Positions 47,123 through 63,935 of a DNA stretch of 64,000 nucleotides are shown here, piece by piece. The first letter of the stretch is position 1. The number at the start of each line of letters is the position of its first letter. The translations under genes and the position numbers were made by a program. The DNA comes from a beta proteobacterium AAP65 (GTDB lineage: Bacteria; Pseudomonadota; Gammaproteobacteria; Burkholderiales; Burkholderiaceae_C): positions 186,001-250,000 of the forward strand of contig LJHW01000004.1 of the NCBI GenBank assembly GCA_001295865.1, written 5' to 3'. The notes beneath the pieces were generated by a model. That model saw nothing but the letters and a program-made list of their open reading frames with translations. It made no database searches and had not been told where the DNA came from.

Positions 47123-47496
47123 ACCAGGTCATCGACACCGTCGAGCGTGACAACAGCCTCAAGACGGTGGGCCACATCAGCTACCTGCTGCACGCGATCG
47201 TGGCCGTGGGCGCGGTGATCCCGGGCGCGCAGCCCGGCGTGGCGCTGCTGCTGGTGGCCTTCATCATCGACCTCGTCAAACGCGGCGACGCCGTGGGCAC
47301 CTGGCAAGAGTCGCACTTCGGCTGGCGCATCCGCAGCGTGGTGATCGCGGCCATCCTCTACCTCATCACCGCCCCGCTCTGGCTGCTGTTCGCGGTGCCG
47401 GGCTGGATCGCCTGGACCTGCATCTCCATCTGGTTCCTGTACCGCGTGGTGCGCGGGTGGATGAACCTGAACAGCAACCGCGCCATCGGCGCCTGA
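47119..47496 (+). CDS. DUF4870-type small membrane protein
   Basis: The 125-residue protein has three hydrophobic segments (about 23-55, 75-95, 97-112), the layout of DUF4870 proteins. Function unknown. It is translationally coupled to hisE (ATGA) and 14 nt before hit, so it is a stable member of the hisIE-hit-tat region. Short loops and few charged residues. Confidence 0.8.
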
Positions 47497-62043: not shown

Positions 62044-63636
<1,593 letters not shown>

Positions 63637-63722
63637 GGGCAGGTTCTTCGAGTGAAAGGGGCCAGGATGATAAGGCGCCCCCCTGGGCCGATCGTTCCTC
63701 GCGCGGCGGTCCGCGCAGGCAG

Positions 63723-63753
63723 AAAAAAGGCCCGGGGCTTGGGGCCCCGGGCC
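63723..63753 (-). terminator. Strong intrinsic terminator on the minus strand upstream of ilvA
   Basis: Perfect 10-bp stem, GGCCCGGGGC (63729-63738) and GCCCCGGGCC (63744-63753), with a 5-nt loop, followed on the minus strand by six T (63723-63728). Nothing T-rich follows on the plus strand. Confidence 0.85.
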
Positions 63754-63816
63754 GAATCCACCGGTTGGAGGTGGAGGAGACAATCGGCGGGCGGTGCCAC
63801 TTGCAACACCGTCCAT
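63723..63816 (-). ncRNA. Candidate small RNA / terminated leader upstream of ilvA
   Basis: A promoter at 63823-63850 predicts a start near 63816. The RNA would run about 94 nt to a T-run after a strong hairpin. Its middle (63762-63779 on the other strand) is a C/U-rich stretch, CUCCUCCACCUCC, complementary to Shine-Dalgarno sequences, as in C-rich-loop riboregulators. Because the next upstream gene is on the opposite strand, the terminator serves no upstream gene. The alternative is an attenuator for ilvA, 87 nt downstream. Confidence 0.55.
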
Positions 63817-63822
63817 GAAGTC

Positions 63823-63850
63823 AATATAGCACCTGAATGCTGCGGTGCAA
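63823..63850 (-). promoter_or_regulatory. Sigma-70-type promoter for the ilvA leader / small RNA
   Basis: On the minus strand TTGCAC (63845-63850), 16-nt spacer, TATATT (63823-63828). Both hexamers are near consensus in a GC-rich genome. The expected start is about 63816, 180 nt before the ilvA ATG. Confidence 0.65.
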
Positions 63851-63935
63851 TATGCGTTTTGCACCGCGTTCTGGTGAGCGCTCTCTACAAACTCCAGCCG
63901 CTGCGCGCGGCGCGCCTGAAAGGGGCAGATTCAAC

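What the first reader, a model, noticed from the sequence alone, without database searches (positions are those of the whole stretch)
63723..63850. Candidate undescribed small RNA or attenuated leader upstream of ilvA
Seen: near-consensus promoter on the minus strand (TTGCAC-16-TATATT), a predicted 94-nt transcript with a C/U-rich CUCCUCCACCUCC centre, and a perfect 10-bp terminator hairpin with T6. The upstream neighbour (OsmC-type gene) points away, so the terminator cannot end an upstream gene. Inference: either a free anti-Shine-Dalgarno sRNA with its own terminator, or a leader RNA that controls read-through into ilvA. The open frame through the RNA has few Ile, Val or Thr codons, so it does not look like a classical leader peptide.
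Basis: partly seen in the sequence, partly recalled or inferred. Interest (0 to 1): 0.78.

Follow-up and report, generated by a model that had tools for sequence, protein, structure and literature searches.

The report
Small RNA beside ilvA, PhaR-type promoter
This is a bacterial small RNA of a known family that probably blocks ribosomes on many carbon-metabolism messages; its promoter appears to carry a binding site for the protein that senses stored bioplastic, which would make it a brake linking carbon storage to carbon uptake.

Summary
The promoter, C/U-rich RNA and terminator are real. The RNA is not undescribed: it matches Rfam RF02278 ("Betaproteobacteria toxic small RNA"; relatives NcS27 of Burkholderia cenocepacia, S17 of Bordetella pertussis) at 58.5 bits over the full model. 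One copy here. It lies just upstream of ilvA, same strand, in 86 of the 104 family genomes that have a match; its hairpins show compensatory change.

An ilvA leader is disfavoured: a TATNAT box lies between terminator and ilvA in 70 of 86 loci, and 21 of 76 named ilvA loci lack the RNA upstream.

New: the -35 box lies inside a dyad (TTGCACCGCAGCA) that fits the footprinted PhaR/PhbF motif. Such a site lies upstream in 78 of 84 ilvA-linked loci, 75 of 78 with a -10-like hexamer 15-18 nt on, and twice at this genome's phasin promoter. PhaR is the repressor titrated by polyhydroxybutyrate granules. The 5' seed matches 30 AGGAGACA sites before ATG here, including pyruvate dehydrogenase E1 and solute-binding proteins. 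Inferred model: granules release the RNA, which brakes carbon uptake. Binding and function are untested.

The parts
63838..63850 (-). candidate PhaR operator TTGCACCGCAGCA; its reverse complement TGCTGCGGTGCAA is an exact fit to TG[N]TGC[N]3GCAA
   Evidence: experimental consensus from PMC3206438 and PMC12849132 (passages read)
63845..63850 (-). -35 element TTGCAC, inside the dyad
63823..63828 (-). -10 element TATATT
63723..63816 (-). predicted 94-nt primary transcript
   Evidence: start predicted, not measured
63722..63782 (-). RF02278 core (Betaproteobacteria toxic sRNA), possible processed form
   Evidence: processing inferred from S17 and NcS27
63773..63782 (-). 5' seed UGUCUCCUCC; its first nine bases are invariant in the 56 aligned cores; its first seven are unpaired in the predicted fold
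63757..63775 (-). hairpin 1 with C-rich loop
63723..63753 (-). hairpin 2: intrinsic terminator, 10-bp stem 63753-63729 and T6
63667..63672 (-). TATCAT, candidate -10 of ilvA's own promoter
62044..63636 (-). ilvA, threonine dehydratase (PALP + Thr_dehydrat_C), 530 aa
63936..64000 (+). start of the divergent 140-aa gene (continues beyond the window)

Best explanation
A trans-acting small RNA of family RF02278, made from its own promoter and ended by its own terminator. Its C/U-rich 5' end (UGUCUCCU) pairs with AGGAGACA-type ribosome-binding sites and blocks translation of many carbon-uptake and carbon-catabolism genes, with pyruvate dehydrogenase E1 (aceE) as the one target whose conservation I checked. 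The promoter's -35 box lies inside an operator for PhaR, so the RNA is repressed while PhaR is free and released when polyhydroxybutyrate granules bind PhaR: a brake on carbon inflow once storage has begun. Its place next to ilvA is conserved but ilvA is transcribed separately. Shown by sequence: family membership, structure, synteny, dyad and its geometry, seed-matching ribosome sites. Inferred: expression, PhaR binding and sign of control, target repression, physiological role. My step-wise odds: sRNA of RF02278 0.95; free sRNA rather than ilvA leader 0.9; PhaR operator 0.8, acting as repressor 0.7; targets include PDH and transporters 0.55.
For: RF02278 58.5 bits vs cut-off 50, full model. 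104 of 120 family genomes have a match, 82 over cut-off; of 132 matches fetched (of 135) ilvA follows in 74 of 88 of at least 50 bits and 12 of 44 weaker ones. Covariation: 129 double-change cells vs 39.6 in shuffles and at most 28 in slid controls, 56 sequences. PhaR palindrome in 78 of 84 loci vs 64 of 1680 resampled sequences; exact PhbF motif 66 of 84 vs 7 of 1680. TANNNT at 15-18 nt from the -35 arm in 75 of 78 vs 82 of 1560 resampled; TANANT 72 of 78 vs 26 of 1560; spacers mostly 17 (45), 16 (16), 18 (10). Named genomes: 52 of 55 (partly the same genomes). phaR gene present, as in 117 of 120 family genomes. Own phasin gene has two such sites around its likely promoter. The S. meliloti mmgR site, listed with gel-shift data (PMC12542648, passages), shares the 14 bases TGCACCGCAGCATT with the window. 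AGGAGACAN{1,8}ATG: 30 sites vs 10 and 9 for two one-base variants; aceE site of 8 or more bases in 19 of the 30 best-scoring loci vs 1 of 77 for ilvA. NcS27, NcS03, NcS05 are raised in glucose, starvation and biofilm, fitting release under carbon excess.
Against: No expression or binding data for this organism. The one same-genus relative, G094, keeps the RNA but lacks the dyad, as do five other ilvA-linked loci. Of copies not beside ilvA only 7 of 14 (50 bits or more) and 7 of 32 (weaker) have it, and RF02278-like copies in other families 4 of 28. PhaR is nearly universal in the family, so presence and absence could not be correlated. PhaR can also activate (phaP3 in R. eutropha). The aceE ribosome site is also kept in genomes where one search found no RF02278 match (G009 7 bases; G014, G040, G041 8 bases), so it does not track the RNA. 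AGGAGACA may simply be a favoured ribosome site here. Only one control gene (ilvA) and the gene's own interior were used for aceE. The eighth seed base is paired in the predicted fold. S17 overexpression did not impair exponential growth of E. coli BL21 and only modestly impaired entry into stationary phase.
Confidence: 0.68

Rival explanations
1. A 5' leader of ilvA: transcription starts at 63816 and the terminator is an attenuator whose read-through sets ilvA expression.
For: Same strand and close upstream in 86 of 104 genomes; short gap, 86 nt from T-run to ATG here; co-directional.
Against: TATNAT box in the gap in 70 of 86 loci vs 47 of 1720 resamples. 21 of 76 named IlvA loci lack the RNA in the 500 nt upstream and 13 of these 21 have a TATNAT box within 160 nt. 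The open frame through the RNA reads MDGVASGTARRLSPPPPTGGFGPGPQAPGLF: no Ile, one Val, two Thr. The minimum-energy and centroid folds show only the terminator form; I did not search for an antiterminator. RF02278 relatives in Burkholderia and Bordetella lie elsewhere.
Confidence: 0.06
2. Free RF02278 small RNA as above, but the dyad is read by another regulator, or PhaR acts there as activator; the PHB-brake model is then wrong in sign or input.
For: TGC-N3-GCA dyads are short; PhaR activates phaP3 in R. eutropha; same-genus G094 lacks the site.
Against: Overlap with the -35 favours repression; exact match to a footprinted consensus, same dyad at the own phasin gene, 14 bases shared with the mmgR site of S. 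meliloti.
Confidence: 0.2
3. A chance promoter-terminator pair, or only a terminator hairpin, without a functional RNA.
For: Terminator-like hits are expected by chance (1.7 in this stretch) and no promoter passes the generic scan.
Against: Rfam match, matches in 103 of 119 genera and compensatory changes.
Confidence: 0.01

Closest known systems
RF02278 Betaproteobacteria toxic sRNA; NcS27, NcS03, NcS05, NcS62 ('double-hairpin RNAs') of Burkholderia cenocepacia (PMC5688073, PMC4603805; passages read)
   Same: C/U-rich 5' end and loop, two hairpins, T-run, ribosome-site complementarity; covariance score over cut-off.
   Different: Here one copy, upstream of ilvA; NcS27 lies between BCAL3348a and BCAL3349. 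The passages name no regulator; [quoted passage not shown] It mentions a common upstream motif of three of them (Fig. S3), which I could not see.
S17 of Bordetella pertussis (PMC11722255, abstract, sections 12-13 and passages read)
   Same: Long primary transcript with a conserved processed 3' form, seed against ribosome sites, repression of transporters and regulators.
   Different: Located beside coq7; higher in the virulence state; no PhaR link in the parts read.
MmgR (alpha-r8 family) of Sinorhizobium meliloti (PMC8401924 section 15, PMC12542648 passages)
   Same: Small RNA whose promoter dyad is a PhaR/AniA site and which PhaR represses; tied to carbon-nitrogen balance and storage; 14 identical operator bases.
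   Different: Different RNA family; lowers phasins; also under NtrC. The window matches no Rfam family other than RF02278 at its cut-off.
Amino-acid attenuator leaders (features recalled)
   Same: Promoter, short RNA and terminator ahead of an amino-acid gene.
   Different: No Ile-rich leader peptide, separate TATNAT box before ilvA.

Membership tests
RF02278 Betaproteobacteria toxic sRNA | covariance score at or above the curated cut-off of 50 bits | tested here: met
   58.5 bits, model 1-64 of 64
RF02278 Betaproteobacteria toxic sRNA | two hairpins, the second an intrinsic terminator, with unpaired C/U-rich 5' end | tested here: met
   predicted fold and covariation
RF02278 Betaproteobacteria toxic sRNA | expressed as a short RNA | not testable with these tools
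   known for relatives
RF02278 Betaproteobacteria toxic sRNA | slows growth when overexpressed | not testable with these tools
   reported for family members, not in exponential growth for S17 in E. coli BL21
PhaR/PhbF-controlled promoter | TG[N]TGC[N]3GCAA motif | tested here: met
   exact at 63838-63850; 3 matches in the window with 1.7 expected by chance on both strands, so a lone match proves little; conservation carries the weight
PhaR/PhbF-controlled promoter | R. eutropha palindrome YTKNTGCRNYGCANMAR with at most 3 mismatches | tested here: met
   3 mismatches, none in TGC or GCA
PhaR/PhbF-controlled promoter | phaR gene present and same motif at the phasin promoter | tested here: met
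PhaR/PhbF-controlled promoter | conserved in relatives | tested here: inconclusive
   78 of 84 ilvA-linked loci in the family, but absent in the one same-genus relative G094
PhaR/PhbF-controlled promoter | binding and repression by PhaR | not testable with these tools
   none
amino-acid biosynthesis attenuator | leader peptide rich in codons of the regulated amino acid | tested here: not met
   frame through the RNA has no Ile, one Val, two Thr
amino-acid biosynthesis attenuator | gene depends on read-through of the terminator | tested here: inconclusive
   separate TATNAT in 70 of 86 gaps argues against; no transcript data

The most novel reading that the evidence does not exclude
In the family that holds Rubrivivax, Roseateles, Acidovorax and Hydrogenophaga, an RF02278 small RNA is the output of the storage-granule sensor PhaR: growing polyhydroxybutyrate granules titrate PhaR, the RNA is released, and it shuts ribosome sites of pyruvate dehydrogenase and solute-binding proteins, closing a feedback loop on acetyl-CoA supply. 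The alphaproteobacterial MmgR circuit would then be a parallel invention with a different RNA and nearly the same operator.
Probability: 0.45. Interest if true: 0.72.

Novelty: new variant of a known kind. Interest (0 to 1): 0.5.

Why it matters
What switches RF02278 RNAs on is open: the 2017 study says regulation of its small RNAs is unknown, and a 2021 review says the role of riboregulation in storage in Cupriavidus necator 'remains undeciphered'. A PhaR operator built into the -35 box gives a direct, cheap test, and ties a widespread anti-Shine-Dalgarno RNA to bioplastic storage.

Tried and rejected
ilvA attenuator: disfavoured by the separate TATNAT box and by ilvA loci without the RNA. 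Conserved small protein from the 5' part: unlikely, since the distance from dyad centre to core varies from 31 to 119 nt and at 31-32 nt (L154, L161) almost no 5' extension is left. Correlating operator with phaR presence: not possible, phaR is in 117 of 120 genomes. OsmC synteny: my script looked on the wrong strand and returned nothing; not repeated across relatives. Strict seed pattern GGAGGAGACAN{0,9}ATG gave one site, so the shorter seed was used. Functional classes (my sorting): 8 of 29 scanned AGGAGACA genes have solute-binding or TonB-plug domains and 8 of 29 central-carbon domains (the 30th frame, L256, has 29 aa and was dropped; 3 of 29 matched no family), against 1 solute-binding protein and 1 porin of 10 for AGGAGAGA; the 9 AGGAGCCA sites were not scanned with Pfam, one of them starts a 3-aa frame and the reversed pattern occurs 6 times; too few for a test. 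Papers: whole-word searches for PhaR with sRNA terms listed 6, 0 and 12 papers; I looked at passages of PMC8401924, PMC9049629, PMC11332829 and PMC12542648 among them and saw no RF02278 RNA; the rest I know from the listing only. Searches matched the word start 'phar' and were swamped. One search listed the RF02278 papers. Sass 2019 on NcS27 and Kimelman 2012 were not read (Kimelman not held), nor any supplement, so prior mention there cannot be excluded.

Controls are first-order Markov resamples, not exact dinucleotide shuffles. Rows dropped: 3 of 135 hits not fetched; 2 of 86 ilvA-linked loci with under 150 nt upstream (L023, L079); 4 of 80 named loci with under 500 nt upstream; L074 (gap 739) and L145 (overlapping match) counted as not adjacent; A1 holds 56 of the 86 ilvA-linked cores. 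For aceE only the 30 best of 59 genomes were given as loci, the own genome included, and in two (L307, L309) the region taken probably misses the true start.

Full report
What is there. On the minus strand the window has TTGCAC (63850-63845), a 16-nt spacer, TATATT (63828-63823), a predicted start at 63816, a C/U-rich stretch and a 10-bp GC hairpin with T6 (63753-63723). The 94-nt RNA folds into three hairpins at -46.9 kcal/mol, z -3.4. The seed UGUCUCC (63782-63776) is unpaired, probability 0.92-0.97; the next bases are in hairpin 1, whose loop is again C-rich and open.

What it is. Rfam names it at once: RF02278, Betaproteobacteria toxic small RNA, 58.5 bits, cut-off 50, full length, one copy in the 4.84-Mb genome. 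In 120 genomes of the same family, 104 have a match at E 0.001 and 82 pass the cut-off; none of 14 control genomes has one. In 185 genomes of the class, which include the own genome and one more of the family, 51 match and those 2 pass. In 56 aligned cores the first nine bases, UGUCUCCUC, are invariant, and both hairpins show compensatory change: 94.5% of cells paired, 129 double-change cells against 39.6 in shuffles and 28 or fewer in slid controls; hairpin 1 alone has 2 of 5 pairs with a change on both sides.

Position. Of 135 matches I fetched 132. ilvA follows on the same strand within 400 nt in 74 of 88 matches of 50 bits or more and 12 of 44 weaker ones, that is in 86 of 104 genomes. Among the 80 best named IlvA genes (nearest a Rubrivivax assembly, 89% identity), 76 had 500 nt upstream and 55 of these have seed and T-run there. 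The other 21, such as Limnohabitans T6-20 and Rhodoferax KJN.1, have ilvA without it at that place; whether the RNA lies elsewhere in them was not tested. Relatives in other families lie elsewhere: 1 of 28 class-level loci had an ilvA match in reach, on the other strand; NcS27 lies between BCAL3348a and BCAL3349, S17 next to coq7.

Not a leader. Between terminator and ilvA a TATNAT hexamer is found in 70 of 86 loci against 47 of 1720 resampled gaps; here it is TATCAT at 63672-63667. Of the 21 named loci without the RNA, 13 have TATNAT within 160 nt. The frame through the RNA has no Ile codon before the terminator. The simplest reading is two transcription units. Read-through adding to ilvA is not excluded.

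The promoter. In 78 of 84 ilvA-linked loci the 150 nt upstream of the core hold the R. eutropha PhaR palindrome (core exact, at most 3 of 17 mismatches); resamples do so in 64 of 1680. The Herbaspirillum PhbF motif TG[N]TGC[N]3GCAA, either strand, is exact in 66 of 84 against 7 of 1680. The dyad's left arm serves as the -35 (TTGCRN in most): a TANNNT hexamer lies 15-18 nt on in 75 of the 78, against 82 of 1560 with the flank resampled, and TANANT in 72 against 26, at spacers 17 (45 loci), 16 (16), 18 (10) and 15 (1). In named genomes 52 of 55 carry the palindrome and 42 the exact motif. Both motifs come from papers whose passages I read: DNase I footprint and lacZ repression in Herbaspirillum (PMC3206438), palindrome and titration by granules in R. 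eutropha (PMC12849132).

In this genome phaR is present. The pattern TTGCANNGCAGCA occurs nine times against one for its reversed control. One copy is at the phasin gene (phasin domain), which has two palindromes, at G000:C24:47362 and 47422, on either side of a likely promoter (TTGCAA at 47386, TATACT at 47408), much as described for R. eutropha phaP1. Several of the other copies lie inside long open frames. In S. meliloti the mmgR promoter has the PhaR site CAATTGTGCACCGCAGCATTA, listed as 'Efficient' in a paper that reports gel shifts with this promoter (PMC12542648, passages and legend); it shares TGCACCGCAGCATT with the window, and there PhaR represses that small RNA.

Against. The one same-genus relative, G094, lacks the dyad, as do five other ilvA-linked loci. 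Copies not next to ilvA have it in 7 of 14 (50 bits or more) and 7 of 32 (weaker), class-level copies in 4 of 28. So the PhaR link belongs mainly to the ilvA-linked copies and is not a feature of RF02278 at large.

Targets. The seed complement AGGAGACA with ATG 1-8 nt on occurs 30 times in the genome, none for the reversed pattern; variants AGGAGAGA and AGGAGCCA occur 10 and 9 times, reversed 0 and 6. Of the 30, 29 start frames of 102 aa or more, some cut by the end of the locus. Pfam finds three Peripla_BP_6, one SBP_bac_1, three TctC, one TonB plug, a 2-oxoacid dehydrogenase acyltransferase (taken as PDH E2) and a Transketolase_N protein taken as PDH E1 (names recalled), acyl-CoA dehydrogenase, enoyl-CoA hydratase, carboxyl transferase, RuBisCO large chain, a TPP enzyme and an FMN dehydrogenase, besides 10 others with a family and 3 with none. 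In the 30 best-scoring loci of 59 genomes (own included) the E1 ribosome region keeps 8 or more complementary bases in 19 and 7 or more in 26, against 8 or more in 1 of 77 ilvA regions and 1 of 390 stretches inside the gene. Four of these genomes (G009, G014, G040, G041) had no RF02278 match and still keep 7, 8, 8 and 8 bases, so the site does not depend on the RNA. It is a plausible target, not a proven one.

Mechanism. Shown by sequence: family, predicted structure, promoter and terminator, dyad at the -35, seed-matched ribosome sites. From the literature: relatives are processed or short RNAs; S17 is Hfq-dependent, cut by RNase E, and represses one tested target directly, with complementarity at or near the ribosome site in 70 of 92 genes; NcS27 overexpression slows growth, and NcS03, NcS05 and NcS27 rise 8.0, 6.9 and 4.3-fold in glucose medium. 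Inferred: free PhaR represses, granules release, the RNA lowers carbon entry and acetyl-CoA formation. In S. meliloti PDH is under positive regulation by PhaR and 30% of one PhaR-activated group are transport proteins, which is what a PhaR-repressed small RNA acting on them would produce; that this works through a small RNA is my inference.

Verdict. Real, known family, ordinary as an RNA. I saw neither the conserved PhaR-type operator nor the ilvA linkage in the papers that I searched and read in part (and the passages named); together they make a testable circuit.

Noticed in passing
L159, L160, L163, L164, L165, L169, L170 (GGATCC kind) and L144, L150, L155, L168 (GGTACC or GGTGCC kind), core positions: Weaker RF02278 matches in relatives share the seed TGTCTCCT and terminator but have a different hairpin 1, as if the seed is the constant part of a larger set of small RNAs.
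   Followed up: no
window 63842-63867: A longer perfect dyad GCGGTGCAA-N8-TTGCACCGC reaches from upstream into the -35 arm of the PhaR-type site; seen by eye, possibly a second half-site.
   Followed up: no
L033-L060: RF02278-like RNAs of other families mostly have a different start (often TGACTCCTCCATCCTCCTTTGGTGG), are not beside a co-directional ilvA and mostly lack the PhaR-type site (4 of 28 have it): probably a separate subfamily.
   Followed up: partly
L061 1351-1426 (G000:C24:47362-47437): Phasin promoter region of this genome holds two PhaR-type palindromes, TTGCTGCACCGCAACAA and TGTTGCAGCGCAGCAA, on either side of a likely promoter.
   Followed up: partly
L067 1501-1513 (G000:C18:43260-43272): Another PhaR-type site lies about 100 nt from the starts of two long divergent open frames, a candidate further PhaR target.
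   Followed up: no
window 62044-63864 (-): One open frame of 606 codons runs from upstream of the small RNA promoter through the RNA into ilvA; probably coincidental in GC-rich DNA.
   Followed up: no
ilvA, window 62044-63636 (-); [quoted passage not shown] it may bear on why a PhaR-type small RNA sits beside ilvA here.
   Followed up: no
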